This document shows positions 4,805-20,308 of a DNA stretch of 35,737 bases, piece by piece. Made by a program: the position numbers and the translations under genes. The DNA comes from an uncultured Prevotellaceae bacterium (GTDB lineage Bacteria; Bacteroidota; Bacteroidia; Bacteroidales; Bacteroidaceae). The notes below the pieces were generated by a model, which ran no database searches, had not been told where the DNA came from, and saw nothing but the letters and a program-made list of their open reading frames with translations. Positions within the stretch are counted from its first letter, which is position 1. Every line of letters begins with the position of its first letter. Where the stretch lies: positions 1 through 35,737 of the forward strand of contig CASFNA010000009.1 in NCBI GenBank assembly GCA_949295905.1. The letters run 5' to 3'.

Positions 4805-4921
4805 AAATGAATAATGAATAATGAAAAATGAATAATCAGGCTACACCTTGCACCTATTCAGCCATTGCAATCCACACATTCCATTATTCATCATTCATTT
4901 TTCATTATTCATTGTTCATTT
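4805..4921. repeat. AT-rich long inverted repeat between trpS and DUF3467
   Basis: Left arm 4805-4836 is built from AATGAAT/AATGAAA words. The right arm 4883-4921 is its reverse complement with one mismatch and a 7-base insertion, leaving a loop of about 46 bases. The right arm begins one base past the trpS stop codon. A shorter inverted pair, GGTGCAA (4791-4797) and TTGCACC (4847-4853), is nested with it. It may act as a weak terminator of trpS or be an intergenic repeat of microsatellite origin. There is no gene here. Confidence 0.7.
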
Positions 4922-6080: not shown

Positions 6081-6168
6081 GCAAAAGGTGGCATTTCGGC
6101 TTGCAAAAGACCGTCTTTCACACAGCAAAAGGCCGTCTTTTGCAACGTGAAAGACCGCATATTGCAGA
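6081..6168. repeat. 22-bp-period palindromic array A (4 units)
   Basis: Four units begin at 6081, 6103, 6125 and 6147, an exact 22-base period. Units 2 and 3 are the cleanest (AAAAGACCGTCTTTC and AAAAGGCCGTCTTTT); units 1 and 4 are degenerate. The core fits AAAGRCSGYCTTT, a 13-bp near-palindrome centred on S. The array lies between the divergent trpS and lipoprotein-leader transcription units. See arrays B-E. Confidence 0.9.
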
Positions 6169-6197
6169 ACCATCGGACAAAACCGATTTACGAGTTG

Positions 6198-6205
6198 CAA
6201 ACTTA
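6198..6205 (-). promoter_or_regulatory. Weak candidate -7 element for trpS
   Basis: The complement strand reads TAAGTTTGC, matching TAnnTTTG. No -33 TTG lies at the proper distance. If used, the trpS transcript would have a leader of about 180 bases that includes repeat array A. Confidence 0.3.
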
Positions 6206-6256
6206 CTAATTTTTTACGACAAACCGCCTATATGCCCATAATAAACAGCAAAACAA

Positions 6257-6287
6257 TTTGTAAATAGACAAAAAATCCATATATTTG
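6257..6287 (+). promoter_or_regulatory. Promoter of the lipoprotein leader RNA
   Basis: TTTG at 6257-6260 and TATATTTG at 6280-6287 are separated by 19 bases, a full match to the Bacteroidetes -33/-7 promoter. Transcription should start near 6294, giving a leader of about 350 bases before the lipoprotein ATG at 6648. Confidence 0.75.
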
Positions 6288-6293
6288 CACCGA

Positions 6294-6647
6294 TTTAACA
6301 CATGTACAACCATTTAAACTTTTAGCACAAAAAACAGATATAAACATGAACGCAACGCTATGAGACAACAAGCGGCCTATGGTTGCACTTGTCTCGACAA
6401 AAAACAACAAAACAAAACAGTACAAAAGCGTTCCATTTCGATACTTATATAAATATTGAACTTTAAGTTGTTGTTCTTATTTTCTGAATACCGCCAATAT
6501 TCACAATACCAAGGACAAGCAAACTCGAAGTTCACGTTTAGGCGTGAACTATTCCTTGCTTGTTGGTATTAGGTAACTTGGCGGTAACCCAGAAAATGAC
6601 AAGTATTGAACGGTTACACGCCTTTTTTAATTAAAAACCAAATAAAA
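6294..6647 (+). promoter_or_regulatory. Structured leader RNA, candidate transcription attenuator
   Basis: The stretch contains no gene of credible length. A first hairpin pairs GAGACAA (6362-6368) with TTGTCTC (6389-6395), with an inner GC-rich stem. A second, about 119 bases long (6479-6597), has five paired segments totalling 39 bp: 6479-6486/6590-6597, 6489-6497/6578-6586, 6505-6512/6563-6570, 6516-6522/6556-6562 and 6530-6536/6543-6549, with a TTTAGG loop. Bases 6580-6589, used in the long hairpin, can instead pair with 6612-6622 to form a terminator followed by six T residues. The two folds exclude each other. The alternative reading is a free-standing small RNA of about 330 bases ending at the terminator. 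Confidence 0.6.
6580..6628 (+). terminator. Terminator hairpin in the lipoprotein leader
   Basis: GGCGGTAACC (6580-6589) pairs with GGTTAC-A-CGCC (6612-6622), ten pairs with one bulged A, followed at once by TTTTTT (6623-6628). Only 19 bases separate it from the lipoprotein ATG, too little for another promoter, so transcription of that gene must read through it. Confidence 0.6.
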
Positions 6648-7430
6648 ATGAAAACCAACAAATCATCTTTGTTTTTAATTGCAGCTCTATTCTGCACAAT
6701 GACGATTACCTCATGTAATAATGACGACGAGAATGACGGCGGAGACAAAGGCCAAGGCGGGAAACCGACAATCCACAAGAAGGTAGCCGACTTCAACGGT
6801 GTCATATACGATGAACAAGGCCGCATCACCTACACACCCCGCTTAAGAATAAACGTCACTTACGGAAAAGACAAAATCGAAGTCAAGGGTATTTCAGATG
6901 ACAATTACGAGTTCACACACACATACAACCTTAACGAAGACGGATTAATAGTTTCAGGTCCGTTAGGTGAATTCGAATACGACGACGAAGGACATCTTGT
7001 AAAAATGAGTTATGAAGTGACAAACATTGCAGGCTATCAGGAAACAAAAGTAGTCCGATACATCTGGAACGACGGCAACATAACCGAAATATCATCTGTT
7101 GAAGCATATGACCGGCTAAGAAAATTCCAAACCTTCGAATATTCGACAGATGAATACATCGGGGATGTGGCCGAATACATCGGCTATCCAGACAACTATA
7201 CAAACGACGAGTTCCTTATTGACTATGGTTACTTCGGTGTAAGGTGCAAGAATTTATGTACTCGGATAAACGAATACAACCTCGACGGAGAAAAAATTGA
7301 CAGGTATCTTACATACGACTACACCCTTAACGCGGAAGGGTACATAACAAAAGTCGTGGAAAAAATAATCACACCCAACGGACAAGCTAACAATCCATAC
7401 ATAACAAACATATCATACCGGGATTTATAA
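6648..7430 (+). CDS. Surface lipoprotein with YD-type repeats, DUF4595-like
   Basis: A 260-aa lipoprotein. MKTNKSSLFLIAALFC is a lysine-bearing hydrophobic signal, and the lipobox ITSC places the lipidated cysteine at residue 23. The following NNDDEND is an acidic stretch like the Bacteroidetes lipoprotein export signal, so exposure on the outer surface is likely. The body has repeated strands of the type FEYDDEGHLVKM, RYIWNDGNITEI and YTLNAEGYITKV, as in DUF4595-like and YD-repeat beta proteins. The ligand is unknown. I chose the start at 6648 because it gives the signal peptide directly; an in-frame ATG at 6606 would lie upstream of the terminator T-run. Expression is probably governed by the attenuator-like leader. 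It ends in a shared terminator with the convergent HAD gene. Confidence 0.8.
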   Translation: MKTNKSSLFLIAALFCTMTITSCNNDDENDGGDKGQGGKPTIHKKVADFNGVIYDEQGRITYTPRLRINVTYGKDKIEVKGISDDNYEFTHTYNLNEDGLIVSGPLGEFEYDDEGHLVKMSYEVTNIAGYQETKVVRYIWNDGNITEISSVEAYDRLRKFQTFEYSTDEYIGDVAEYIGYPDNYTNDEFLIDYGYFGVRCKNLCTRINEYNLDGEKIDRYLTYDYTLNAEGYITKVVEKIITPNGQANNPYITNISYRDL

Positions 7431-7435
7431 TCGAC

Positions 7436-7478
7436 AAACGTAAAAGGCATCCACTACGAGCGGATGCCTTTTGCGTTT
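7436..7478. terminator. Bidirectional terminator between lipoprotein and HAD-hotdog genes
   Basis: AAACGTAAAAGGCATCC (7436-7452) and GGATGCCTTTTGCGTTT (7462-7478) form a 17-bp stem with one T-G wobble and a 9-base loop. A-tracts and T-tracts flank it in both directions. It serves two convergent genes. Confidence 0.85.
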
Positions 7479-7485
7479 GCCCCTT

Positions 7486-8718
7486 TCACCTCTTCTTCAT
7501 TATGCTGTTCACCACGCGGATGCTCGACACGAGCTTGTTGGTGGAGGTGAACACATCGACATTCCACACGTGCGACGAGCGTCCGCGGTGTACGATGGTG
7601 CCTACGGCGCGCACCGTGTCGCCCTCGTGCGCCGAGGAAACGTGGTTGCCGCTAACCTGCATGCCCACAACGATTTCGTCGGGCTGGCAGGTTATCATCG
7701 AGCCGAGGCCCGCCACTGTCTCGGCCAGGGCCAGCGTCGCGCCTCCGTGCAGTATGCCGAAGGGCTGGCGCGTGCGCTCGTCAACGGGCATGGTAGCCTC
7801 TATGCGGTCGGGCGAGGCGTAGGTGTACTGTATTCCGAGGTTGCCCATCAGTGCGTGCTTTGCCTGGGCGTTGAGCAAGTCGAGCGGAATTTCAGACGCA
7901 TGAACCTCCGAAAGGATAAGTTTCTCTACAGCCTGGGCCACGCCGTCCTCCTCGTTGGAGCCTGTCACGTAGTCGGCGCACACCTTGACGGAGTCTTGCG
8001 CGTGCCCCATGGCAACGCTCTTGCCTGCCAACTGCAGCATCGTAACGTCGGCCACGCCGTCGCCGATGGCTATTACCTCCTCGCGCTTCACGCCAAGCTG
8101 CTCCATGAGCACGGCCAAGGTGTTGGCCTTGTCAACGCCGAAGGGAACGACCTCGAGGAAATACGGCTCAGAGGGGAACACGTCGAGCACGCCGGCCAGC
8201 CGCCGCTTCCAGTGGTTTTCCAGTCCGCGCAGGGCCTCGTAGTCGTCGCTTACCAGCACGCACTTGCACGGGGCGAAGTCTATTGCGATTGAAAATTCAG
8301 GCTCTTCCATTATTTTCAGGTGGTTGAGCCATGCCTCGCGGCGTATGTGTATATCGTCGGCGTTGTCCGTAAGGATGTATTCGTCGTGGTAGGTGAATAT
8401 GGAAAAGCCGTTCTTGCGCGACTTCTTCTCAAGGTATGGTATTTGTTCGGGATTGATGCGGCGCTCGAACATCACCTCGCCCGTGCCCGCCTTGATTACC
8501 TGGCAGCCGTTGTAAGCCAGTATGTAACCGCCGAAATTGCCCAGTTCGAGAGCCTTTGCCAACGGCATAAGCCCCGACGTGGGCCTGCCCGAGGCCAGCA
8601 CGATGCGTATTCCCATGTGTTGCACTTTAAGCAAGGCCGCAAGCGTGCGCTTGCTTATCTCCATCTCGTTGTTAAGCAGTGTCCCGTCTACATCGAGAAC
8701 CAATAGTTTGTATTTCAT
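7486..8718 (-). CDS. Fusion of a Cof-type HAD phosphatase and a hotdog thioesterase
   Basis: A 410-aa two-domain cytosolic protein. Residues 1 to about 270 are a HAD-superfamily hydrolase of the Cof/IIB type: LDVDGTL with the nucleophile and acid Asp9/Asp11, LASGRPTSG, and GDGVAD around Asp220. The last motif normally reads GDGxND; the Asn is Ala here while the second Asp remains. Residues about 275-410 are a PaaI/DHNA-CoA-type hotdog thioesterase, with GILHGGATLALAETVAGLGSM including the catalytic Glu context. The likely activities are hydrolysis of a small phosphorylated metabolite and of an acyl- or aroyl-CoA; substrates are not evident. A menaquinone-related DHNA-CoA role is possible for the C-terminal half. 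The fusion is in frame with no sign of a sequencing join. It has its own promoter. Confidence 0.9.
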   Translation of the reverse strand: MKYKLLVLDVDGTLLNNEMEISKRTLAALLKVQHMGIRIVLASGRPTSGLMPLAKALELGNFGGYILAYNGCQVIKAGTGEVMFERRINPEQIPYLEKKSRKNGFSIFTYHDEYILTDNADDIHIRREAWLNHLKIMEEPEFSIAIDFAPCKCVLVSDDYEALRGLENHWKRRLAGVLDVFPSEPYFLEVVPFGVDKANTLAVLMEQLGVKREEVIAIGDGVADVTMLQLAGKSVAMGHAQDSVKVCADYVTGSNEEDGVAQAVEKLILSEVHASEIPLDLLNAQAKHALMGNLGIQYTYASPDRIEATMPVDERTRQPFGILHGGATLALAETVAGLGSMITCQPDEIVVGMQVSGNHVSSAHEGDTVRAVGTIVHRGRSSHVWNVDVFTSTNKLVSSIRVVNSIMKKR

Positions 8719-8811
8719 AGCGTCGGGCGTTTTGGTTTGTAACTAAAAAGACAGAGCATACGGGACGACGGCCAACCTGCCTGCTACATCCCTTATGCCG
8801 CTTATCTTTTG

Positions 8812-8841
8812 CAAATATAGCGAAAGACAGCGTGATACCAA
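8812..8841 (-). promoter_or_regulatory. Promoter of the HAD-hotdog gene
   Basis: On the complement strand TTG (8839-8841) and TATATTTG (8812-8819) are 19 bases apart, a good Bacteroidetes promoter. It lies about 94 bases upstream of the ATG. Repeat array B starts about 50 bases further upstream. Confidence 0.7.
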
Positions 8842-8892
8842 TACATTTGCAGGATTATTTCAAGTTTAAAAAAGTTAACGGCGGCGCATCAT

Positions 8893-8980
8893 GCAAAAGG
8901 CCGCCTTCCGGCTTCTGAAAGACGGCCTTTTACACGATAAAAGACGGCCTTCCGCATTACGAAAGGCCGTCTTTTGCAAA
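8893..8980. repeat. 22-bp-period palindromic array B (4 units)
   Basis: Units start at 8893, 8915, 8937 and 8959. Cores are AAAGGCCGCCTTC, AAAGACGGCCTTT, AAAGACGGCCTTC and AAAGGCCGTCTTT, so both orientations of the near-palindrome occur. The array begins ten bases past the flavoprotein stop and upstream of the HAD promoter. Confidence 0.95.
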
Positions 8981-8990
8981 ACGCGCGCAC

Positions 8991-9617
8991 CTATCTTATG
9001 AAGCTTGTCATTATGCCCGGCTCCCTCTCGGGCACGGGCTGGCCGCCGTTCTTCAGGCTCTTCAGCACCCAGGCCATGTTCCGGCCAAGCGTGCGCATGG
9101 TCTGAAGGCCCTCGGCGTCTTGCTCCGCCTCGCCCTTGGCGCGGCCGTGCACGCTGTTCCAATACTGCGAGCTTACCACGGGCATGCAGCTCATCATGAA
9201 ATACTTGTTAAGCCTGTCGAACGTAGCGCTCGCCCCTCCGCGGCGGCACACGGCGACAGAGGCCGCAGGCTTGTAGCGCAGCAGCGGCGCAGCCGAGTAG
9301 AAGAGCCTGTCGAGCAGGGCGCAGAGCGAGCCGTTGGGGCCGGCGTAATACACGGGCGAACCTACCACAATGGCGTCGGCCGTCTCCAGTTTTTCACGCA
9401 CATTATTATATAATGTGTCATTGAACACGCACCGGCCAATCTCCGCACACTTGCCGCAGACTATGCAGCCCTGCACCGCCTTCGTGCCGATTGACACGAT
9501 TTCAGCCTCTACGCCTTCCGCCTCGAGCGTCTTCGCCACCTCTGACAGGGCTATGTACGTGTTGCCCTCGCCGCGCGGACTTCCGTTAATCAGTAATACC
9601 TTCATATTGTCTTTCAT
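8991..9617 (-). CDS. Iron-sulfur flavoprotein / NADPH-dependent FMN reductase family
   Basis: A 208-aa flavodoxin-fold protein. GSPRGEGNT (residues 12-20) is the FMN phosphate loop, and VVGSPVYYAG the second flavin-binding loop. Four cysteines, Cys51, Cys54, Cys57 and Cys63 (C-x2-C-x2-C-x5-C), match the compact cluster motif of iron-sulfur flavoproteins, which bind [4Fe-4S] and move electrons in anaerobes, for example against oxygen or reactive oxygen species. The physiological donor and acceptor here are unknown. The start could be 9617 (MKDNMKVLL) or four codons later at 9605. It is monocistronic and divergent from the GH3 gene. Confidence 0.87.
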   Translation of the reverse strand: MKDNMKVLLINGSPRGEGNTYIALSEVAKTLEAEGVEAEIVSIGTKAVQGCIVCGKCAEIGRCVFNDTLYNNVREKLETADAIVVGSPVYYAGPNGSLCALLDRLFYSAAPLLRYKPAASVAVCRRGGASATFDRLNKYFMMSCMPVVSSQYWNSVHGRAKGEAEQDAEGLQTMRTLGRNMAWVLKSLKNGGQPVPEREPGIMTSFIR

Positions 9618-9654
9618 TTTATAACAACGTTGCGTTTGTTTCGTTTATCCTCTG

Positions 9655-9662
9655 CAAAGGTA
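9655..9662 (-). promoter_or_regulatory. Candidate -7 element for the flavoprotein gene
   Basis: The complement strand reads TACCTTTGC, matching TAnnTTTG, 38 bases before the ATG at 9617. The -33 region is T-rich without a clear TTG. Confidence 0.5.
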
Positions 9663-9750
9663 CTGATTAGCGGCTAAAAACGCGTAAACTGATTACCTGT
9701 TTTAGAAACAATATTACGCTTTCAGACCATGCCCGGCCACAGACACTTTC

Positions 9751-9838
9751 CCAAAAGACGGCAAAACGGAGCGCAAAAGGCGGTCTTTCGCAGCGTAAAA
9801 GGCGGCCTTTGGCAAGGCGAAAGACCGCCTTTTGAAAC
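9751..9838. repeat. 22-bp-period palindromic array C (4 units)
   Basis: Units start at 9751, 9773, 9795 and 9817. Unit 1 is degenerate in its right half (AAAGACGGCAAAA); units 2-4 read AAAGGCGGTCTTT, AAAGGCGGCCTTT and AAAGACCGCCTTT. The array sits in the divergent region between the flavoprotein promoter and the GH3 promoter. The rest of the 395-base gap holds only those promoters. Confidence 0.93.
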
Positions 9839-9968
9839 GCAAGCGGTAACACTCTGTGTTCCAGCATGTTACCGTTTGCCGCCGAAAAGCGTGGCCAAGG
9901 ACGTAGCGGAAGGGCTGATAAAAAATGTCAAACGCGGCCGATTGCACCGAAATGTAAAATTAAATTGC

Positions 9969-9976
9969 TATATTTG
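9969..9976 (+). promoter_or_regulatory. Candidate -7 element for the GH3 gene
   Basis: TATATTTG matches the consensus and lies 36 bases before the ATG at 10013. The nearest TTG (9942-9944) is 24 bases upstream, longer than usual, so the promoter may be weak or activator dependent. Confidence 0.5.
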
Positions 9977-10012
9977 CACATTGTTTATTTATTCAAGGTA
10001 AAATCTAAAGCA

Positions 10013-12601
10013 ATGAAAAACTTACTTAACAAACTCATTATGGCCGGCTGCGCCATGCTCGCCTTGTCGTGCGGCAGCAACATGCCATACCAAGACCCCG
10101 ACCTCTCTGCCGACGAACGGGCGGCCGACCTGGTAAGCCGGCTTACGCTGGAAGAGAAAGTATCGCTCATGCAATATGACTCGCCGCCCATAGACAGGCT
10201 CGGCATCAAGGGCTACAACTGGTGGAGCGAGGCCCTGCACGGCGTGGGGCGCGCCGGTCTGGCTACGGTGTTCCCGCAGTGCATAGGCATGGCAGCGTCG
10301 TGGAACGACGCCCTCGTGCAGGACGTTTTCACCGCCGTGAGCGACGAGGCGAGGGCCAAGAACAACGAGATAATAAAGAAAGGCGACCCGAAAATATACC
10401 AGGGCCTTACTTTCTGGACACCCAACATCAACATATTCCGCGACCCGCGGTGGGGACGCGGACAGGAAACCTACGGCGAAGACCCCTACCTCACGGCGCG
10501 CATGGGCGTGAGCGTGGTCAACGGCCTGCAAGGCCCCAAGGACGAGAAGTATAACAAGCTGCACGCCTGCGCCAAGCACTACGCCGTACACTCGGGCCCG
10601 GAATGGAACCGGCACGTGTTCAACGCCGAGAACATAGACCCGCGCGATTTGTGGGAAACGTACCTTCCGGCGTTCAAAACCGCAGTGCAGGAGGCAGGCG
10701 TAAAGGAGGTGATGTGCGCCTACAACCGCTACGAGGGCGAGCCGTGCTGCGGCAGCAACCGCCTGCTCCAGCAAATACTGCGCGACGAATGGGGCTACAA
10801 GGGCATCGTGGTGTCCGACTGTTGGGCAATAACCGACTTCTACACGGAAGGCGCGCACAACACCGAGCCTGACTCGGCGCACGCTTCGGCCAAGGCCGTG
10901 GCAAGCGGCACCGACCTTGAATGCGGCCAGACTTACCAGTCGCTCGTCGATGCCGTCAACGCCAGACTCATCAGCGAGAGCCGCCTCGACACCGCCGTGA
11001 CACGCCTGATGAAGGCGCGCATAGAGCTTGGCGAGTTCGACGAGGACGTGCCCTGGCGCAACATCCCGTACAGCGTGGTTGACAGCAAGGAGCACCGCGA
11101 CCTGGCTCTGCGCATGGCTCAACAGAGCATCGTGCTGTTGCAAAACAACGGCGGACTGCTGCCTCTGCCCAAGACGGGGCTGAAAATAGCCGTAATCGGC
11201 CCCAACGCCAACGACAGTGTGATGCAGTGGGGCAACTACAACGGCTTCCCGTCGCACACAATTACCCTGTTGCAGGGCTTGCAGAGCAGAGTGCCGGAGG
11301 ACAAGCTGATATACGAGTACGGATGCGACTACACGTCGTCAGTAGGCCTGCAAAGCCTCTTCGCCGACTGCCAGGCTGACGGCAAGCGCGGCTTCAAGGC
11401 ATCATACTGGAACACACTGGAGCCGGAAGGCAAGCCCGACGTGGTTACACACGTGTCTGACCCGTTCCGCTTCACCACCGCCGGAGCCATAGTATTCGCC
11501 CCGGGCGTGCAGCTGGGAGGCTTCTACGCCGAATACGAGACTACGTTCAGCCCCAAGAAGAGCGAGGAAGTGGTGTTCAGTTTCCAGACGCAGGGCAAGG
11601 CTCACCTGCACATCAACGGCAAGGAAGTGGCCGAAGCGCTTAACACAAAGAACAACAGGGCTTACGCGATGAAGGTGGAAGCCGGTAAGACTTACGACAT
11701 AAAGGTGGACTTCAAGGCGAGCGAAGGCGACTGCGCCACGCTTAACTTCGACTTCGGACGCGAGGTGCCGCTCGACATTCAGCAAAGTGTCAACAAGGTG
11801 AAAGACGCCGACGTAATCATCTTCGCAGGCGGAATAACGCCCGGACTCGAGGGCGAGGAGATGCCGATAACCGTGCCCGGTTTCCGCGGAGGCGACCGCG
11901 AGTGGATAGAACTGCCCGAAGTGCAGACACGACTGCTGGCCGAACTCAAGAAGACGGGCAAGAAAATAGTGTTTGTCAACTTCTCAGGCTCGGCCATAGC
12001 ACTGACCCGCGAGGCCGCCATGTGCGACGCGATAGTGCAGGCATGGTACCCGGGACAGGCCGGTGGCGATGCCATCGCGTCGGTGCTCTTCGGCGAATAC
12101 AACCCTGCGGGCCGACTGCCCATAACGTTCTACAAGAGCACCAAGCAGCTGCCCGGCTTCGAGGACTACTCAATGAAGGGGCGCACGTACCGCTACATGA
12201 CGGACGAGCCGCTCTTCCCCTTCGGCTACGGACTTAGCTACACCACGTTCGCTTACGGCGACGCGGCGGTGTCCGCCACCGAATTCGACGCCGACGAGGG
12301 CTGCACGCTGACCGTTCCCGTCACCAATACGGGCACAAGAGACGGCGACGAAGTGGTGCAGGTGTACATGCGCCGTCCGTCAGACAAGGAAGGGCCGGTG
12401 AAGACGCTGCGCGCATTCCGCCGCGTAACGCTGAAGAAGGGCGAGACGAAGAACGTTGAGTTCAAGCTCGACGGCAAGTCGTTTGAGTGGTACGACACGC
12501 AGTCGAACACCGTCCGCCCCGTAAGCGGAGAATACGAAATAATGTACGGCGGCACGTCAGACAGCAAGGCGTTGAAGACCGTAAAGGTCAGCCTTAAATG
12601 A
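10013..12601 (+). CDS. GH3 glycosidase lipoprotein, beta-xylosidase/beta-glucosidase type with PA14 insert
   Basis: An 862-aa exo-acting retaining glycosidase that releases terminal beta-linked sugars. MKNLLNKLIMAGCAMLALSC is a lipoprotein signal with Cys20 lipidated; the next residues (GSNMPYQD) lack an immediate acidic run, so a periplasmic location is possible. The N-terminal GH3 barrel has YNWWSEALHGVGRAG, FRDPRWGRGQETYGEDPYL and CAKHYAVHSGPE. The nucleophile is Asp269 in VVSDCW. A PA14-like beta domain (about residues 460-590) is inserted in the second domain, then PGQAGGDAIASVLFGEYNPA and a C-terminal fibronectin-III-like domain. This architecture resembles Prevotella xylosidases, hence the xylose preference, but glucosidase or arabinosidase activity cannot be excluded. 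The start at 10013 gives the signal peptide. The stop codon lies inside the terminator stem. Confidence 0.93.
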   Translation: MKNLLNKLIMAGCAMLALSCGSNMPYQDPDLSADERAADLVSRLTLEEKVSLMQYDSPPIDRLGIKGYNWWSEALHGVGRAGLATVFPQCIGMAASWNDALVQDVFTAVSDEARAKNNEIIKKGDPKIYQGLTFWTPNINIFRDPRWGRGQETYGEDPYLTARMGVSVVNGLQGPKDEKYNKLHACAKHYAVHSGPEWNRHVFNAENIDPRDLWETYLPAFKTAVQEAGVKEVMCAYNRYEGEPCCGSNRLLQQILRDEWGYKGIVVSDCWAITDFYTEGAHNTEPDSAHASAKAVASGTDLECGQTYQSLVDAVNARLISESRLDTAVTRLMKARIELGEFDEDVPWRNIPYSVVDSKEHRDLALRMAQQSIVLLQNNGGLLPLPKTGLKIAVIGPNANDSVMQWGNYNGFPSHTITLLQGLQSRVPEDKLIYEYGCDYTSSVGLQSLFADCQADGKRGFKASYWNTLEPEGKPDVVTHVSDPFRFTTAGAIVFAPGVQLGGFYAEYETTFSPKKSEEVVFSFQTQGKAHLHINGKEVAEALNTKNNRAYAMKVEAGKTYDIKVDFKASEGDCATLNFDFGREVPLDIQQSVNKVKDADVIIFAGGITPGLEGEEMPITVPGFRGGDREWIELPEVQTRLLAELKKTGKKIVFVNFSGSAIALTREAAMCDAIVQAWYPGQAGGDAIASVLFGEYNPAGRLPITFYKSTKQLPGFEDYSMKGRTYRYMTDEPLFPFGYGLSYTTFAYGDAAVSATEFDADEGCTLTVPVTNTGTRDGDEVVQVYMRRPSDKEGPVKTLRAFRRVTLKKGETKNVEFKLDGKSFEWYDTQSNTVRPVSGEYEIMYGGTSDSKALKTVKVSLK

Positions 12602-12644
12602 AAAAGAAAGTCCAAGGAGACAGCTCCTTGGACTTTCTTTTTCA
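12599..12644. terminator. Perfect 21-bp terminator shared by GH3 and MscS genes
   Basis: The bases 12599-12619 and 12624-12644 are exact reverse complements with an ACAG loop. The left arm begins with the GH3 TGA stop. The A5/T5 tracts at the stem base work in both directions for the two convergent genes. Confidence 0.9.
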
Positions 12645-12679
12645 TCTTTCTTTTCCCACCTTCTCAATCTCTAACCTTC

Positions 12680-13870: not shown

Positions 13871-13899
13871 ACGATTAACGCGTGATTGGTTAGCGTGGG

Positions 13900-13931
13900 C
13901 AAAAATACAAAATAATGGGGAAAAAAGCAAA
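13900..13931 (-). promoter_or_regulatory. Promoter of the MscS-family gene
   Basis: On the complement strand TTTG (13928-13931) and TATTTTTG (13900-13907) are 20 bases apart. The -7 element lies 30 bases before the ATG, which also argues against the longer upstream start. Confidence 0.65.
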
Positions 13932-13995
13932 CAAAAAGCCTCATCGGGGAAGCCTCTCACGGCAGGCCGCGCAACAGGCTGTCCCTCAACGCGTT

Positions 13996-14083
13996 GCAAA
14001 AGGCCGTCTTTCAGACGGCGAAAGACGGCCTTTTGGCGTGCGATTTGCGGCCTTTCAGAATACGAAAGACGGCCTTTCAGGAT
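13996..14083. repeat. 22-bp-period palindromic array D (4 units)
   Basis: Units start at 13996, 14018, 14040 and 14062. Units 1, 2 and 4 read AAAGGCCGTCTTT, AAAGACGGCCTTT and AAAGACGGCCTTT. Unit 3 has its left half replaced (TTTGCGGCCTTTC), the same change as in unit 3 of array E. The array lies between the divergent MscS and CE8 promoters, 64 and 92 bases from them. Confidence 0.95.
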
Positions 14084-14175
14084 TATGACGCAAGCCTGCA
14101 CCCCGCCAATACAGACAAAAAACGGACAAGAACGGCGAAAATGGCGAAAATGAAAATATTTTCCGACCAAGCCGC

Positions 14176-14204
14176 TTGCATTCCAAAGATTATGCTTATC
14201 TTTG
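14176..14204 (+). promoter_or_regulatory. Promoter of the pectinesterase-pectate lyase unit
   Basis: TTG (14176-14178) and TATCTTTG (14197-14204) are 18 bases apart. Transcription should start near 14211, giving a leader of about 210 bases before the CE8 ATG. Confidence 0.65.
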
Positions 14205-14210
14205 CCAGCC

Positions 14211-14421
14211 GATATGAAGCGCCGCGGCTTTACATGGATGAAAAGCCGCCGCATTACGGCTGATTATCAATTCAACAAACAACTTAAGACGGCGCAGCCG
14301 CCACCGACAACCGGCAATACACGGGCACATGCCGCGCGATGCGGCGTGGAGGAGCAAGCCTGCAAGGAAGACTTTACACATTATATTATTATTCAATACT
14401 AACTAATCAAACAACAAATCT
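14211..14421 (+). promoter_or_regulatory. Long GC-rich leader of the CE8 gene with two hairpins
   Basis: GCGGCTTT (14224-14231) pairs with AAAGCCGC (14242-14249), and CATGCCGC (14328-14335) pairs with GCGGCGTG (14341-14348). No T-run follows either, so they are not terminators. The last 60 bases are AT-rich and free of structure, suiting ribosome access. A leader of this length is unusual beside the 30-40 base leaders of the neighbouring genes. Confidence 0.45.
14214..14402 (+). CDS. Possible small leader ORF before CE8 (62 codons)
   Basis: An open frame begins MKRRGFTWMKSRRITADYQF, three bases after the inferred transcription start, and ends 19 bases before the CE8 ATG. The product would be basic at the N-terminus and 62 aa long, with no signal peptide or known domain. 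There is no room for a ribosome binding site, so translation would be leaderless. It spans both leader hairpins, so it may simply be an open frame in a GC-rich structured leader. I do not recognise a family. Confidence 0.25.
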   Translation: MKRRGFTWMKSRRITADYQFNKQLKTAQPPPTTGNTRAHAARCGVEEQACKEDFTHYIIIQY

Positions 14422-17400
14422 ATGGTAAACAAACATTTACACGCTTTTGTTTGTACGCTCGTAGCCCTGTTGGGAGCATTATTCCCGATGGCAGCCGGCG
14501 CACAAGACGTAAACTCCGAGGTAACGGCTACATGGCCCTTCGACCTTGGAACGGAAGGACAGGCCGCGACCGTCACGCCGACGGAAGGCGGCGAATGGTT
14601 CAAGAGCAGCTATGTGATGTTGGGAAGCAACTTCACATACAATGGAACGGAAAAGCCGAAAGATAAAAACGGCAACGTTGACAACACCAACGAACCGACG
14701 CAGACAAAAATAAAATCGGCAGGGAAAGACGGTGGCGCGACAGAAAACAACGCCATCGAGTTCATGCTCTCACCAAAAACAGGAATGAAGTTCACACCGA
14801 CAAAGGTCGAGTTTACATCCTCCAAATTCGGCACGGGAGGCGGACGCTTCGACATATCATGGGTAAACGCCGACGGTTCAACCATATCATTGGCAACAAA
14901 CCAGAATCCGGCACGCAACGACGCCACCGACCCCGACGGACAACTTAGCACGAGGTTCAGCTACAATGTGACAGAAGCCATCGCTTCTGAAGGCGCATGC
15001 GGCCTGCGCATCAACGTCTACAACCTTGACGCCGGAAAGAATGTGGGTTTTGCCAATGTCGTAATAGAGGGCAGAATTGAAGGCACGGTACAGGAAGTCA
15101 AGCAGTGCAACCTCACCGTGCAAGTGTCTCCCGAAGGGGCCGGTTCTGTCAACGTACAGCCTGCCGGAAGCATGACTTTCGACGAAGGCACCGAAATAAC
15201 ACTTACCCAGACACGCAACTTCGGCTACAAGTTCGCAGGATGGAACATAGGCGGCAAGACCGTATCAACGGACAGCGAATACAAGTTCACCATAACAGAC
15301 GACACGGACGTTACCGCCAACTACGAGAAAATAGACACCTACGCCCTGACTTATGGCGCAACGGGCGGCGGCAAGGACTACATGATTACGCCGACACCCG
15401 CGCCGACGGTAATCGACGGCAAGAACATGTACGAGGACGGACAGGAAGTAACGCTCACGGCAACAGGCAACTACATACTCGATTTCGCCAACTGGAGCAA
15501 CGGCGAGACAACACCCGAGATAAAGGTCGCAATGGAACAGGACGTGAACATCACAGCGGCATTCTCGGCATCAAAGGACTGCATTGCTGGATGGGACTTC
15601 CATACAGCAGGCGGCAACGGGCGCAAGGCCGACTTCCATGCCGCCGACAACGACGCCACCACACTGACGCTGCGCAATGAGGAAGGGCCTGCAAACGGAT
15701 GGCTTGACAAAAGCTACGAGGCCGACAACAACGGATATGAGGGCAGATACGCAGTGGTCAACTGGCGCACCGACGGCCTCGGCAAATACTACTGGCAGAC
15801 AACGGTCAACGCCGCCGCATTCAAAGACATAAAGGTACGCGCCGAAATGATGTACAACTATAACGCATACACAAAGCAGGACGTGGAATGGTCTTTGGAC
15901 GGAAATACTTGGCACCTGCTCGGCTCATACAACATAGAAGGAAGGAAAGCCTGGACCGAAGAAGAGTTCGCCGTCCCTGCGGAAGCCGACAACCAGGAGG
16001 CTGTGTACATCCGTTGGAAATCAGACACAAGCTCAAACGTTGACGGAACAGAATCAAACAACGACGGCATAGCCATCGCCGGCATATACATCACTGGCGT
16101 ACAAGAGATAGTTGACGACGGAATCGCACCCAAGCTCGTGTCTACCGTCCCGGCGGAAGGCGCAGACAACGCCTCGGCCAACGGGCGCATAGTGCTCAAC
16201 TTCGATGAAAAGGTCAAAATAAAGGAAGGTACGGCCGCGACGCTTGGAGCACAAGAACTGCAGCCTGTCGTATCAGGAAAGAGCATCATGTTTGAATACA
16301 GAGGCCTCGACTACTCCACCCTGTATACATTCACACTGCCCGGGAACACGGTAAGCGACCTTACCGACAACTACATCGCCAGCCCCATAACGCTGAACTT
16401 CACCACAATGACAAAGCCGGTGGTCACTAAAGCAGAATTCGACTTCATCGTACCCGACGACGGTTCGATAACAGAAGCCTTCACTGCGGCGGCCGCACGC
16501 GAGAACACGGCCAACCAGTTCCGCATCTTCGTGAAACAAGGCGACTACGTAATACCTGCATCAGAAACATCAACCCCAATCACCGGCTCTGACGGCAAGG
16601 AATACGACAACCCGATAACCACACTGAACACGCCCAACGTGTCAATCATAGGCGAGGGAATGGACAACACATCGTTTGTCAACACCGTGCCTTACACCGC
16701 CCCAGGCACAAAAAACCCGATAGAGGGACTTGGCAAATGCGAGACGTTTGAATTCGGGAAAAACGCCACAGGCATATACATGCAGGACATAACCGTTAAA
16801 AACGGCCTTGAGGACAACACCGGACGAGGAGCCGCGCTTGAAGACGGAGGCAACAAGAACGTGTTTAAAAACGTGCGCCTTTACGGCTATCAGGACACTT
16901 ACCTGTCCGATAACCAGAACGGACGCTTCTACTTCGAAGGCGGCGAACTGCGCGGACGCACTGACTTCCTTTGCGGCAAAGGCGACGTATTCTACAACGG
17001 AGTAACCCTCGTAATGTGCGAAAAGGGCGGATATCTCGCAGTGCCTTCCGTGCCCAAACAGTACGGCTACATATTCAAGGACTGCGTCATCAAAGGCGAA
17101 AGTGACGACGTTGACGGCAACTATACGCTCGGACGCCCATGGGGAGACGGCACTCCCATCGCGCTGTACATAGACACCAGGATGGAAGCCCAACCGTCTG
17201 CAATAGGATGGGCCGACATGGGTACAGGATGGCCGGAACGCTTTGCGGAATACAACTCAACAACATCGTCGGGCACGGTCATTTCACTTAACGACAGGAA
17301 AAAGACATTCAACGGCCATGAAAACAATCCTTCGCTGACAGAGGAGGAAGCCGCATTCTATACTGTAGAAAATGTCATGGGAGCCGATGACGACTGGAAT

Positions 17401-17799
17401 CCCACATCATTGACCGAACAGGCGTCAGCTCCGACAAACGTTGTCATCAACGGCACCACAATGACATGGGACAACAGCGACTACATACTCTGCTGGGCGG
17501 TATGCAAAGACGGCAAGGTGGTTGACTTCACCATAGAGCCTACATACACAGTCACAGACACCAACGCGGAATACTCCGTGCGTGCAGCCAACCAGATGGG
17601 AGGCCTCGGCGAAGCAACCAAAGCGACAACCGGCACCGGTATTGACGAGGTTGAGACCGATGAAGCGGGCAAGACCGTAAGCACAGCATACTACAGCGTG
17701 CAGGGTGAACGGGTAAGCAGCTCGTACCGGGGCATCGTGATAGAAGTAAAAACCATGGCGGACGGCAGCAAAGCCGTGCGCAAGACCATAAGGAAATAA
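14422..17799 (+). CDS. Modular secreted pectin methylesterase (CE8)
   Basis: A 1125-aa exported enzyme that removes methyl esters from homogalacturonan. A signal peptide (residues 1 to about 27, ending AAGAQ) is followed by an N-terminal beta module, two InlB-B-like repeats (YKFAGWNIGGKTV and LDFANWSNGETTPEI contexts, about 230-390), a jelly-roll-like segment from about 395, and an Ig-like Big_5 domain (about 570-670, DDGIAPKLVSTVPAEGADNA). The catalytic beta-helix lies at about 675-980: GYQDTYL with Gln824/Asp825, GRTDFLCGKGD with nucleophile Asp848, and LGRPWG with Arg905, all the CE8 active-site residues. The tail (YYSVQGERVSSSYRGIVIEV) resembles Bacteroidetes T9SS sorting tails, suggesting secretion to the surface. 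It is followed after 91 bases by PL1, probably on one transcript. Confidence 0.93.
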   Translation: MVNKHLHAFVCTLVALLGALFPMAAGAQDVNSEVTATWPFDLGTEGQAATVTPTEGGEWFKSSYVMLGSNFTYNGTEKPKDKNGNVDNTNEPTQTKIKSAGKDGGATENNAIEFMLSPKTGMKFTPTKVEFTSSKFGTGGGRFDISWVNADGSTISLATNQNPARNDATDPDGQLSTRFSYNVTEAIASEGACGLRINVYNLDAGKNVGFANVVIEGRIEGTVQEVKQCNLTVQVSPEGAGSVNVQPAGSMTFDEGTEITLTQTRNFGYKFAGWNIGGKTVSTDSEYKFTITDDTDVTANYEKIDTYALTYGATGGGKDYMITPTPAPTVIDGKNMYEDGQEVTLTATGNYILDFANWSNGETTPEIKVAMEQDVNITAAFSASKDCIAGWDFHTAGGNGRKADFHAADNDATTLTLRNEEGPANGWLDKSYEADNNGYEGRYAVVNWRTDGLGKYYWQTTVNAAAFKDIKVRAEMMYNYNAYTKQDVEWSLDGNTWHLLGSYNIEGRKAWTEEEFAVPAEADNQEAVYIRWKSDTSSNVDGTESNNDGIAIAGIYITGVQEIVDDGIAPKLVSTVPAEGADNASANGRIVLNFDEKVKIKEGTAATLGAQELQPVVSGKSIMFEYRGLDYSTLYTFTLPGNTVSDLTDNYIASPITLNFTTMTKPVVTKAEFDFIVPDDGSITEAFTAAAARENTANQFRIFVKQGDYVIPASETSTPITGSDGKEYDNPITTLNTPNVSIIGEGMDNTSFVNTVPYTAPGTKNPIEGLGKCETFEFGKNATGIYMQDITVKNGLEDNTGRGAALEDGGNKNVFKNVRLYGYQDTYLSDNQNGRFYFEGGELRGRTDFLCGKGDVFYNGVTLVMCEKGGYLAVPSVPKQYGYIFKDCVIKGESDDVDGNYTLGRPWGDGTPIALYIDTRMEAQPSAIGWADMGTGWPERFAEYNSTTSSGTVISLNDRKKTFNGHENNPSLTEEEAAFYTVENVMGADDDWNPTSLTEQASAPTNVVINGTTMTWDNSDYILCWAVCKDGKVVDFTIEPTYTVTDTNAEYSVRAANQMGGLGEATKATTGTGIDEVETDEAGKTVSTAYYSVQGERVSSSYRGIVIEVKTMADGSKAVRKTIRK

Positions 17800-17806
17800 G
17801 CCTTCA

Positions 17807-17854
17807 TCGGCCTTACCGAGTGCAGCCAACAATACACCGCACAGGTAAGGCCGA
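17807..17854 (+). terminator. Intercistronic hairpin between CE8 and PL1
   Basis: TCGGCCTTACC (17807-17817) and GGTAAGGCCGA (17844-17854) form a perfect 11-bp stem with a 26-base loop. Only a weak TTTT follows. No promoter is visible before PL1, so this is more likely an RNA-processing or partial-termination site than a full terminator. Confidence 0.5.
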
Positions 17855-17890
17855 AGTGCTTTTACATATTCAACCAAAATCTCAAATATT

Positions 17891-20014
17891 ATGCTAAAAA
17901 GATTTTTACACTCTCTGCTGCTGACAATGGGGCTGCTCCTCACCGCCAACGGCACACAAGCGCAACAAACGCCGGCATTTCCCGGGGCCGAAGGCTTCGG
18001 AATGTACACCACCGGCGGACGTGGCGGCACGGTATACCACGTCACCACTCTTGAAGACACTGAGGGGAAAGGCTCGCTGCGCTACGCCATCAACCAGAAA
18101 GACACCCGTACAGTAGTATTCGACGTATCGGGTACGATACATCTCAAGAAAGAACTAAAAATCGACAGAGACAACATAACCATAGCCGGGCAGACTGCAC
18201 CCGGCGACGGAATATGCGTGGCCGACTATCCGGTTGTGATTTCTGCGAACAACGTAATCATACGCTTCATGCGCTTCCGCCTCGGCAACAAGGAAGTAGC
18301 ACACCATGAGGGCGACGGACTCGGCGGCACGGACAACAAGAACATCATAATCGACCACTGTTCGGTAAGCTGGAGCATAGACGAATGCCTCTCCGTTTAC
18401 GGCAGCGAGAACCTTACCGTGCAATGGTGCATCGCATCACAGAGCCTGCGTGCGTCAGGACACACGAAAGGCAACCACGGCTACGGCGGCAACTGGGGCG
18501 GCTCCGGCGCATCTTACCATCACAACCTGATGGCGCACCACGACTCACGCGTTCCGCGCCTCGGACCGAGACCCGGCACACAGACAGACGAGCGCATGGA
18601 CATGCGCAACAACGTGTTCTACAACTGGGGCGGAAACGGATGCTACGGTGGCGAAGGCATGAACGTAAACATTGTGAACAACTACTACAAGCCGGGACCG
18701 GCAACGATGAAGCGCGGCACCAACATACAAAAGCGCATAGCCGGCATTGGCATACGCACCAGCGAATACACAAACCACGGAACGCCTGAAGCCAACGAAT
18801 GGGACAAGATGTGGCATGTATGGGGCGACTTCTACGTTAAAGGCAATGTAAATCCCCTAAATGCAGACGTGACACGGGACAACTGGACTTACGGCATATA
18901 CAACCAAATTAAGAACTCGGACGTTGACAACACATTCACCCAAGAGACACGCGACACCATGAGAATGGATGCGCCCCTGACATTCTACGCCGTAACCACA
19001 CACTCTGCCGAGGATGCCTACGAACGCGTACTGGAATACGCAGGAGCTTCGCTGCGCCGCGACTGGGTTGACGAGCTGATAGTCAACGACACATACGAGG
19101 GCACAGCCACTTGCACCGGAACAAAAAGCAACATCCCGGGCATCATCGACTCGCAGGACGACCTGAAGCAGGCGTTCCCTGACGCAGGCGCAGACTGGAA
19201 CCCCTGGCCGGAACTGGCAAGCGAACCGGCACCGCTCGACACAGACCAGGACGGAATGCCGGACGACTGGGAAGACGCCAACGGCCTTGACAAGAACAAC
19301 GCCGCCGACGGTGCGGCCATTGGTGCCGACGGTTACTCGAACCTTGAGACATACATGAACAGCCTCGTACAAGACATAATGGACGGAGGCAACGAGGGCG
19401 GAACGCTGCTTAGCGGCAACCAGGAGTTCGGCGAACAAGGCGGAGGCGACGAACCGTCGCAAAACGTGGTCTACGAACTGTCTGACGCAACATATACGGC
19501 ATCGCCCGAAAAGACGACATGGAACTTCAACAACGGCTTCAGCATAACAAACGGGAAAGACAAAGGTTACGGCAAGGGCGACAATGGCTGCATGAAATTC
19601 TCCCGCAACGTACAGTTCACAATCGTCATACCCGAGGGCAAAAAAATAAGCAAGGTGGGCATAATCGGTTACGACAACTACGCCGACACCGACGGGTACC
19701 TGGCCGAGCTTAACGGCATGGAATACAGCGAGACCGAATACGTATTCCCAAAGAAGGACAACGACGAGCCCGTGTATACAACCCACGAAATCGAGCTGGC
19801 CACGCCGGCTGAAGGGACGATGACATTCACCGTGAGCGGCCAGCAATGCGCACTCAAGTTCAACCTTACCGCAGAAGTGTCAACAGGCATAACCGACATA
19901 AACGCCGGACACAGGCCTGACGGCAGAATATACAACCTGCAAGGCATCGAGGTGAAAGAGCCGCTACGCCCGGGAATATACATCCGCGACGGAAAGAAAT
20001 TCGTCAAAAGGTAA
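17891..20014 (+). CDS. Secreted pectate lyase (PL1)
   Basis: A 707-aa exported enzyme that cleaves demethylated polygalacturonate by beta-elimination and needs calcium. After a signal peptide (1 to about 25, ending TQAQ) comes FPGAEGFGMYTTGGRGG, the usual N-terminus of Bacteroidetes PL1 enzymes, then the parallel beta-helix with IIIDHCSVSWSIDECLSVYG and SRVPRLGPRPG; Arg220 in RVPR is the likely catalytic base. DTDQDGMPDDWEDANGLD (about 455-475) is a calcium-binding EF/TSP3-like segment. The C-terminal module (about 530-660) looks like a carbohydrate-binding jelly roll. The tail IYNLQGIEVKEPLRPGIYI resembles T9SS sorting tails. It should act after the upstream methylesterase. Confidence 0.93.
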   Translation: MLKRFLHSLLLTMGLLLTANGTQAQQTPAFPGAEGFGMYTTGGRGGTVYHVTTLEDTEGKGSLRYAINQKDTRTVVFDVSGTIHLKKELKIDRDNITIAGQTAPGDGICVADYPVVISANNVIIRFMRFRLGNKEVAHHEGDGLGGTDNKNIIIDHCSVSWSIDECLSVYGSENLTVQWCIASQSLRASGHTKGNHGYGGNWGGSGASYHHNLMAHHDSRVPRLGPRPGTQTDERMDMRNNVFYNWGGNGCYGGEGMNVNIVNNYYKPGPATMKRGTNIQKRIAGIGIRTSEYTNHGTPEANEWDKMWHVWGDFYVKGNVNPLNADVTRDNWTYGIYNQIKNSDVDNTFTQETRDTMRMDAPLTFYAVTTHSAEDAYERVLEYAGASLRRDWVDELIVNDTYEGTATCTGTKSNIPGIIDSQDDLKQAFPDAGADWNPWPELASEPAPLDTDQDGMPDDWEDANGLDKNNAADGAAIGADGYSNLETYMNSLVQDIMDGGNEGGTLLSGNQEFGEQGGGDEPSQNVVYELSDATYTASPEKTTWNFNNGFSITNGKDKGYGKGDNGCMKFSRNVQFTIVIPEGKKISKVGIIGYDNYADTDGYLAELNGMEYSETEYVFPKKDNDEPVYTTHEIELATPAEGTMTFTVSGQQCALKFNLTAEVSTGITDINAGHRPDGRIYNLQGIEVKEPLRPGIYIRDGKKFVKR

Positions 20015-20084
20015 GAAAGCGATACGGCGAGACGGTGGAAAAGCCGTTGAGACGAGCCGTAAAAAACCGTCAATGCAAAACGTG

Positions 20085-20117
20085 AGAGCCGCCCAAACGA
20101 CGCGTTAGGGCGGCTCT
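20085..20117 (+). terminator. Hairpin after PL1
   Basis: AGAGCCGCCC (20085-20094) and GGGCGGCTCT (20108-20117) form a perfect 10-bp stem with a 13-base loop, 70 bases past the PL1 stop. No T-run follows, so termination is less certain than structure. Confidence 0.5.
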
Positions 20118-20156
20118 ATCCGTATCCGCGGCTAAACGGCTGACAGCCAGCGGTTT

Positions 20157-20244
20157 GGCAAACGCCGTGTTTCACATTCCAAAAGGCCGCCTTTTGTATT
20201 GCCGTTTGCGGCCTTTCGTCTTGCAGAAGGTCGCCTTTCAGCTT
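20157..20244. repeat. 22-bp-period palindromic array E (4 units)
   Basis: Units start at 20157, 20179, 20201 and 20223. Unit 2 is canonical (AAAGGCCGCCTTT); units 1, 3 and 4 are diverged (AAACGCCGTGTTT, TTTGCGGCCTTTC, GAAGGTCGCCTTT), but the 22-base phase is kept. Located between PL1 and the conjugative-element scar. Confidence 0.85.
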
Positions 20245-20264
20245 CATCCGCAGTTTGTTTGGAT

Positions 20265-20291
20265 GAGATAATTGCATCTCCTTTTGTTTTT
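20265..20291 (+). terminator. Possible terminator before the traQ relic
   Basis: GAGAT (20265-20269) and ATCTC (20276-20280) form a short stem with a 6-base loop, followed by the T-rich CTTTTGTTTTT. The stem is only 5 bp. Confidence 0.3.
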
Positions 20292-20308
20292 GTCATTACA
20301 TTTTGTAT

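What the first reader, a model, noticed from the sequence alone, without database searches (positions are those of the whole stretch)
6081..20244. Five dispersed 88-bp arrays, each four near-palindromes at an exact 22-bp period
Arrays A (6081-6168), B (8893-8980), C (9751-9838), D (13996-14083) and E (20157-20244) each contain four units whose starts are exactly 22 bases apart. The unit core is AAAGRCSGYCTTT, a 13-bp near-palindrome present in both orientations. No array has more or fewer than four convincing units. All occur in the interposed 19.6 kb and none in the flanking ribosomal/RNAP blocks. The 22-bp spacing is close to two helical turns, so a protein bound at each unit would face nearly the same side of the DNA. 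I know of no named family with this design. It could be a REP/MITE-like intergenic repeat, a multi-site operator, or a nucleoid-protein binding array.
Basis: seen in the sequence. Interest (0 to 1): 0.78.

Follow-up and report, generated by a model that had tools for sequence, protein, structure and literature searches.

The report
Evenly spaced Prevotella intergenic palindrome arrays
Some Prevotella genomes carry hundreds of copies of a short non-coding DNA element built from about four 22-base palindromes, and in three related species the copies sit between genes at surprisingly even intervals, which suggests either a role in organising the chromosome or a mobile element that spaces itself out.

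Summary
In detail: all five arrays are in exact 22-bp register, with 18 of 20 slots scoring. The host genome has 821 adjacent-unit pairs against 0 for a reversed control, and 125 arrays in the 761 kb sampled, about 450 genome-wide by extrapolation. The 22-bp architecture recurs in the genus with species-specific cores: 35 of 398 genomes have 100 or more matches. Copies are polarised by a flanking dyad, TAAC..TTGA..TCAA. Of 125 arrays, 120 lie in gene gaps, never two in one gap, and they are overdispersed: CV of neighbour distances 0.46 against 0.77-0.85 expected, replicated in two related species (0.40 vs 0.93; 0.43 vs 0.80) but not clearly in two others. Unit pairs covary without the strand bias expected of RNA. 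The published P. intermedia repeat PINSR is almost certainly one species' version. No transposase was linked. Best reading: a PINSR-like dispersed element acting at DNA level as a multi-dimer binding site that punctuates the chromosome. Close rival: a selfish element with local transposition immunity. Function is inferred, not shown.

The parts
6081..6168 (.). Array A, four 22-bp units, between a trpS-like gene (start 6011, -) and a + gene; lies between a conserved promoter-like sequence and the trpS start
8893..8980 (.). Array B, four units, 10 bp beyond the stop codon of the (-) gene 8991-9617
9751..9838 (-). Array C, three scoring units and one degraded, between divergent genes; orientation given by its End-1 dyad
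9845..9873 (-). End-1 dyad of array C (GGTAACAC...GTTACC palindrome)
13996..14083 (+). Array D, four units (third degraded, ATTTGCGGCCTTT), between divergent genes
13972..13993 (+). End-1 dyad of array D
20157..20244 (+). Array E, three scoring units and one degraded, after the + gene 17891-20014
20133..20154 (+). End-1 dyad of array E

Best explanation
Each array is the body of one copy of a polarised, non-coding dispersed element of about 120-190 bp: an 'End-1' dyad (TAAC..TTGA..TCAA) followed, at distances differing by 11 bp, by about four 22-bp palindromic units. Shown: it is dispersed, intergenic, polarised, constrained at DNA level (no strand preference in the paired units 1-2, no preferred orientation to transcription), species-specific in core but shared in architecture, and overdispersed along the chromosome in three species. 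Inferred: a sequence-specific dimeric DNA-binding protein occupies each unit, four dimers lying side by side on nearly the same DNA face, and the complex marks boundaries between transcription units at quasi-regular intervals (about 5-10 kb, by species) as a chromosome-domain or insulator element. Copies arise by an unidentified dispersal process; core and reader change together between species.
For: Strict 22-bp register. Overdispersion in G000: 6 of 113 neighbour distances under 2 kb against 21.5-28.6 expected and CV 0.46 against 0.77-0.85, 0 of 3000 nulls for either under all six gap definitions; replicated in G102 (23 distances, minimum 5456 bp, CV 0.40 vs 0.93, 0 of 3000) and G089 (25 distances, CV 0.43 vs 0.80, P 0.0003) with different mean spacings. 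No gap of 120 holds two arrays. Of 68 classifiable arrays 67 are intergenic. Occupancy of 300-600 bp gaps: divergent 18 of 23, convergent 8 of 11, tandem 19 of 40. DNA-level constraint: G.T 57 vs A.C 59 mispairs in U1-U2, n 45; orientation 12 with and 9 against tandem genes. Architecture shared by species with other cores. At 4 loci filled in both G108 and G017, slots 1 and 3 plus spacers 1-3 differ at 14 of 212 sites, flanks 90 of 631, End-1 39 of 124; see the caveat in the Against line.
Against: No binding protein or function was found. The low divergence of slots 1 and 3 and spacers is a post hoc selection: with slots 2 and 4 and spacer 4 the array interior differs at 41 of 352 sites, close to the flanks. 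Overdispersion is weak in G108 (CV 0.76 vs 0.87, P 0.25; under 3 kb 2 vs 6.5, P 0.015) and not significant in G317 (9 arrays, P 0.19). In G000 contigs C2, C5 and C22 fail alone because each has a void, C6, C4 and C3 pass; under 1 kb the deficit is small (1 vs 3.5-7.1, P 0.005-0.10). Sites turn over between sister species, unexpected for an essential boundary. A self-spacing selfish element would give much of the same pattern.
Confidence: 0.42

Rival explanations
1. A selfish non-autonomous transposable element with local target immunity: a trans-acting transposase binds the 22-bp units, and bound arrays repel new insertions within several kb, so the copies space themselves. The core tracks the transposase.
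For: The closest pairs of copies share spacers, and in the printed alignments their similarity stops at about TGTAAC and just after unit 4. At trpS the array is present in G000 and G089 but absent from G004, G077 and G102, where the same promoter-like sequence leads into a short leader. One void contains many small co-oriented genes and an AAA_22 protein, which I read as a Mu-like prophage. Overdispersion is what immunity near saturation would give.
Against: No cognate transposase: Y1_Tnp in 13 of 31 array-rich and 13 of 29 array-free genomes; Mu-transpos_C over its cut-off in 0 of 60, a weak test because the model also rang in none of 14 control genomes. One G108 copy missing from G017 left the element's right end behind, so it is a deletion there. 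Two array-like sequences lie in genes; one of them, compared with 13 orthologs, shows no length change.
Confidence: 0.37
2. An RNA element, for example a bidirectional terminator or mRNA 3'-end hairpin, formed by unit 1 with unit 2 and unit 3 with unit 4.
For: Covariation in the 1-2 and 3-4 frames (70 cells changed on both sides vs 47.5 +/- 6.1 shuffled, 0 of 500), not in the 2-3 frame nor within units. Arrays lie near stop codons (median 88 bp). At a convergent gap three relatives carry unrelated long hairpins instead. U3-U4 has more G.T than A.C: 81 vs 68 (P 0.33), 26 vs 14 in the 17 well-formed cases (P 0.08).
Against: In the best-formed helix, U1-U2, G.T and A.C are equal, 57 vs 59; 20 vs 14 in the second sample. 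Orientation to transcription is not biased, and long divergent gaps are the most often occupied. After orientation the 3-4 covariation is absent in the larger group (z 0.3, n 32) and present in the smaller (z 2.9, n 13); independent arrays give z 1.9 for 1-2 and 2.7 for 3-4.
Confidence: 0.08
3. The unit-to-unit complementarity is mutational: quasi-palindrome correction by template switching copies one unit onto another, without selection for a hairpin. (Explains the covariation only, so it can hold beside the others.)
For: Slot 4 differs as a block between G108 and G017 at 3 of 4 orthologous loci: at two it complements slot 2 in both species although both slots changed, at one it complements slot 3 in G108 and slot 2 in G017; at the fourth only slot 2 changed and pairing was lost (read from the alignments). 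Spacers 1-4 differ at 13 of 144 sites. The partner differs by species: 1-2 and 3-4 in G000, 2-4 in G108.
Against: Does not explain the 22-bp register, the shared architecture or the spacing; U2-U3 is equally close but shows no covariation in G000.
Confidence: 0.12

Closest known systems
[quoted passage not shown] 2015, PMC4755523)
   Same: [quoted passage not shown] The G108 element is about 190 bp and lies downstream of a tnaA-like gene, so it is almost certainly PINSR and shares the End-1 plus 22-bp-unit architecture.
   Different: The G000 core (RCSGY) differs from G108's. PINSR was reported as confined to one clade by PCR and without terminal inverted repeats; '22-bp' occurs 0 times in the main text. 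The published consensus is in a figure not held, so letters were not compared.
BrickBuilt MITE of Porphyromonas gingivalis (PMC4596501)
   Same: Intergenic element of a Bacteroidales species with a tandem repeat between distinct ends (abstract, opening part and passages seen).
   Different: 23-nt repeats, 1 to 22.8 copies, IS5-like terminal inverted repeats, 19 copies in strain ATCC 33277; here 22 bp, palindromic, about four units, hundreds of copies.
REP/BIME elements and RAYT transposases (PMC2817692)
   Same: Many species-specific extragenic palindromes, in BIMEs in alternating orientation, suggested to bind proteins and organise the chromosome (passages including the abstract seen).
   Different: Units lack the GTAG/GTGG start of the REPs seen in that paper's table, have a fixed 22-bp period, occupy divergent gaps most often, and show no association with Y1_Tnp.
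Tn7/Mu transposon ends (recalled, from no call)
   Same: Arrays of 22-bp transposase sites and transposition immunity over kilobases.
   Different: Those sites are, as I recall, not palindromic; no Mu-transpos_C protein over cut-off in 60 genomes.

Membership tests
PINSR | Intergenic, non-coding, high copy number | tested here: met
   67 of 68 classifiable arrays intergenic; about 450 copies extrapolated from 125 in 761,180 bp
PINSR | Located downstream of tnaA in P. intermedia | tested here: met
   Met for G108 only: element read by eye in the sequence downstream of its best Beta_elim_lyase hit, which I take for tnaA (the script's own hit list was uninformative). Not seen within 700 bp in G361 or G017. 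Species name of G108 not known; G000 not tested
PINSR | 188-bp published consensus | not testable with these tools
   Consensus is in a figure; figures not held. G108 element length about 190 bp
REP/BIME | Association with a RAYT (Y1_Tnp) gene | tested here: not met
   13 of 31 array-rich vs 13 of 29 array-free genomes; none found in G375, G108, G342, G403 or G102
REP/BIME | GTAG/GTGG start beside the palindrome | tested here: not met
   Unit profile TGYRAAAGRCSGYCTTTYRCA against REP sequences seen in PMC2817692
MITE | Terminal inverted repeats and target-site duplication | tested here: inconclusive
   G000 copies show no evident inverted repeat at their ends (by eye); G108 ends look weakly inverted (TGTAAAnATnnTTC, by eye); no clean TSD established
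BrickBuilt | 23-nt direct repeats with IS5-like ends | tested here: not met
   Period 22 or 44 only; palindromic units; IS5-like ends not searched for
Structured RNA (Rfam) | Match to a curated family | tested here: not met
   At gathering threshold only two tRNA matches in 6 sources, 135,737 bases
Mu/Tn7-like element | MuA/TnsB-type transposase present | tested here: inconclusive
   PF09299 over cut-off in 0 of 60 genomes and in 0 of 14 controls

The most novel reading that the evidence does not exclude
A self-spacing chromosome punctuation system: a fast-evolving DNA-binding protein reads a species-specific core on about four phased 22-bp dyads, and its action sets a species-characteristic distance between neighbouring elements (mean 5.2 kb in G000, 6.3 kb in G089, 9.9 kb in G102), re-established after sites turn over. 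The core evolves in part by block switching of whole units, often in complementary pairs, rather than by point mutation alone.
Probability: 0.3. Interest if true: 0.9.

Novelty: new variant of a known kind. Interest (0 to 1): 0.74.

Why it matters
I found no description of an evenly spaced bacterial intergenic repeat at kilobase scale in the listings of my literature searches (open-licence papers only). If functional, it would offer a sequence-defined handle on chromosome domains in Bacteroidales. If selfish, it would be an unusually clear natural case of transposition immunity setting genome-wide spacing. Either way it places the little-studied PINSR repeat (one paper in the library) in a wider family whose architecture is shared while its core differs between species, so the reader protein should be findable by pull-down or by co-variation of gene and core.

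Tried and rejected
RAYT/REP origin: rejected on co-occurrence; the array-free genomes may still hold arrays of a motif my pattern misses. Mu/Tn7-type transposase by PF09299: no signal, a weak test. Terminator or RNA reading: demoted. Known RNA family: none at gathering threshold. Phage carriage: the generalised pattern hits 3 stretches in 2 IMG/VR contigs. 'End-2' (TCATCCGCAGTTT..) was first taken as the element's other end; 10 flanks matched, not all convincingly, and at array E it begins a 57-nt inverted repeat bounding about 2 kb, so I treat it as a neighbouring element. On re-checking for this report I found that slot 4 complements slot 2 in both species at two, not three, of the four orthologous loci, and that low divergence holds only with slots 2 and 4 left out; I lowered the best explanation from 0.45 to 0.42 and raised the immunity rival from 0.35 to 0.37.

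Selections that affect counts. Arrays need two or more scoring units; two single-unit hits were dropped. Orientation by End-1 was possible for 45 arrays with a hit within 50 bp; of 70 arrays 21 had no End-1 hit and 19 neither end motif. The End-1 matrix was trained on array flanks. Alignment A2 holds 31 elements: of 33 candidates with End-1 at 27-28 bp, one crossed a stretch boundary and I left out the one inside a gene. In one search one measure, pairs with a change on both sides, is not extreme (20 vs 17.2, 56 of 500). The G000 spacing test used 113 distances among 121 arrays, from segments of five or more arrays after splitting at voids over 20 kb; the first four arrays of C5 fell out. G102 and G089 were not split. 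G108 copies were found by exact slot 1, so slot-1 invariance there is by construction; the looser search found 29 arrays, 28 with that slot 1, but its reversed control also gave 25, which I attribute, unverified, to the same arrays read through their spacers. G108 orthology placed 7 of 28 elements because only part of G017 and G361 was fetched; 4 filled pairs entered the divergence count. Slot pairing 2-4: G108 26 of 29 (shuffles 0 of 2000), G017 8 of 13 (142 of 2000). Gene calls come from my own hexamer script. The array-rich and array-free lists were chosen by me. G375 and G010, array-rich, gave only 1 and 3 arrays in 80 kb each.
Full report
Check. The five arrays are in the window at the stated coordinates, each as four slots in exact 22-bp register. 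In the first 426,657 bp examined, sites matching the core with at most one mismatch are only ever 22 or 44 bp from a close neighbour. The own genome (G000, 2.73 Mb, 23 contigs; the window is contig C9 entire) has 821 adjacent-unit pairs against none for the reversed pattern. My weight matrix finds 125 arrays of two or more units in 761,180 bp: 78 span four slots, 34 three, 10 two and 3 five. Of the window's 20 slots, 18 score 5 bits or more; C1 and E3 do not.

Distribution. A core-free pattern, AAAG-N5-CTTT three times at 22 bp with up to three mismatches, matches 167 of 398 genus genomes, many of them with counts near the control; 35 have 100 or more matches, one of them (G368) with an equally high control. 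Cores differ by species. Unit number depends on species: mostly four in G000, G089 (25 of 28) and G102 (20 of 25); four to seven in G108 and four to six in G317 by generic detection, four or five in 28 of 29 G108 arrays by a stricter one.

Anatomy. One flank carries a dyad, TAAC-nn-GTTGA-nnn-TCAAC ('End-1'), mostly starting 27-28, 39 or 50 bp before the first core, i.e. in steps of 11 bp; 49 of 70 arrays have a hit. Of 90 strong hits of this motif on both strands of 426,657 bp, 79 lie within 150 bp of an array; the motif was trained on array flanks. Oriented by it, slots have position-specific cores: slot 1 GCCGT, slot 2 ACGGC, GCGGC or GTGGC, slot 3 often ATTG or ATTT at its left half. Beside arrays of other species it scores strongly in 2 of 28 loci tried (G004, G335) and weakly in others; in G108 it is placed exactly 27 bp before slot 1 in 28 of 29 arrays, with scores from 4 to 21 bits. 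Closely related G000 copies share spacers, and the printed alignments stop matching near TGTAAC on one side and just after unit 4 on the other.

Pairing. Across 45 four-unit arrays unit 1 resembles the reverse complement of unit 2 (z 5.8, 0 of 2000) and unit 3 that of unit 4 (z 3.6, 1 of 2000), while 2-3 does not (z -3.5). Once oriented, 1-2 holds in both groups (z 4.7, n 32; z 2.8, n 13), but 3-4 only in the smaller (z 0.3 and 2.9). On 31 aligned elements the 1-2/3-4 structure with End-1 has 70 cells changed on both sides against 47.5 +/- 6.1 in shuffles (0 of 500); the 2-3 frame and within-unit pairing show no excess. In 28 oriented arrays from new stretches the signal is weaker: z 1.9 for 1-2 (95 of 2000) and 2.7 for 3-4 (12 of 2000). 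In U1-U2 mispairs show no strand bias (G.T 57, A.C 59); in U3-U4 they are 81 and 68 (P 0.33). Elements point with tandem genes 12 times and against them 9 times. So the constraint is on DNA, or arises by DNA-level mutation, rather than on RNA.

Placement. Of 70 arrays in the first sample, 67 were intergenic, 1 overlapped a gene and 2 were at edges. With all 761 kb, 120 of 125 arrays lie in called gene gaps and no gap holds two. In gaps of 300-600 bp net, occupancy is 18 of 23 divergent, 8 of 11 convergent and 19 of 40 tandem; distance to a stop codon has median 88 bp and to a start codon 240 bp. Neighbouring arrays avoid each other: 6 of 113 distances under 2 kb against 21.5-28.6 for random choice among eligible gaps, CV 0.46 against 0.77-0.85, none of 3000 nulls reaching either under six gap definitions; mean 5.2 kb (from the distances). 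By contig, C6, C4 and C3 pass (P 0.001 or less) and C2, C5 and C22 do not, each having a void. Two further species replicate it with different means: G102 mean 9851 bp, minimum 5456, CV 0.40 vs 0.93 (0 of 3000); G089 mean 6349 bp, CV 0.43 vs 0.80 (P 0.0003). It is weak in G108 and not significant in G317, where detection is generic. One void holds many small co-oriented genes and an AAA_22 protein, which I read as a Mu-like prophage.

Turnover and evolution. Upstream of trpS (gene name and promoter reading are mine) the array lies between a conserved promoter-like sequence and the start codon in G000 and G089, with one unit fewer in G089, and is absent from G004, G077 and G102. At C5:87559, between convergent genes, G000 and G077 have arrays while G089, G004 and G102 have unrelated long hairpins. 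In G108 28 elements found by exact slot 1 are nearly uniform in the other units too but variable inside End-1; slot 4 is close to the reverse complement of slot 2 in 26 of 29. At four loci filled in both G108 and G017, slots 1 and 3 plus spacers 1-3 differ at 14 of 212 positions, flanks at 90 of 631 and End-1 at 39 of 124; slots 2 and 4 differ at 12 of 52 each, in blocks, and the whole interior at 41 of 352. At two loci slot 4 complements slot 2 in both species although both changed; at one it complements slot 3 in G108 and slot 2 in G017; at one pairing is lost in G017 (read). One G108 element is partly deleted in G017, leaving its right end. These patterns fit partial selection on the units, templated block changes, or both, rather than simple decay of dead copies.

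Known relatives. PINSR is a 188-bp intergenic repeat of the P. intermedia group with 177 and 184 copies in two strains, about three quarters at shared regions (PMC4755523, section 3.4 read whole). The G108 element is about 190 bp and lies downstream of a tnaA-like gene as PINSR does, so I take them as the same, though the published consensus could not be compared. In the library PINSR appears only in that paper. REP/BIME membership fails on RAYT association and on the unit's start; BrickBuilt differs in period and unit number. PMC5771137 was seen in passages only.

Mechanism. I favour a multi-dimer DNA-binding site marking transcription-unit boundaries at set intervals (0.42). A self-spacing selfish element is close behind (0.37). 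What is shown is the family, its polarity, its DNA-level constraint and its overdispersion in three species; the protein, the dispersal route and the function are inferred.

Noticed in passing
window 20241-20297 and 22222-22278: 57-nt inverted repeats (72% complementary) bound a roughly 2-kb segment that begins where array E ends; similar TCATCCGCAGTTT..TGGATGA motifs adjoin several other arrays, so a second mobile family may insert beside arrays.
   Followed up: partly
window 4805-4921: 32-nt inverted repeat (94% complementary) made of heptad-like AATGAAT/ATTCATT repeats between two genes; similar long hairpins take the place of an array at a convergent gap in G089, G004 and G102.
   Followed up: partly
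L063:1650-1950 (G000 C4:61763) and G000 C4:46783: Array-like units plus End-1-like motifs inside two genes. In the first, 13 orthologs have nearly the same length, so the pattern is in place without insertion; the second was not compared with orthologs. Unexplained.
   Followed up: partly
L055:16055-16157 and 16705-16823: Two long near-perfect palindromes in G000, with similar sequences elsewhere in related genomes on both strands.
   Followed up: no
G368 and G387: The reversed control pattern scores 474 and 63 there, as if other 22-bp-period motifs or low-complexity repeats exist in these genomes.
   Followed up: no
G000 C3:1200-1547: A Y1_Tnp gene lies a few hundred bases from an array (C3:766), although Y1_Tnp shows no association across genomes.
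   Followed up: partly
G108 L277:2741 in G017: The sequences flanking this element lie on two different G017 contigs, a possible rearrangement or contig break at the element.
   Followed up: no
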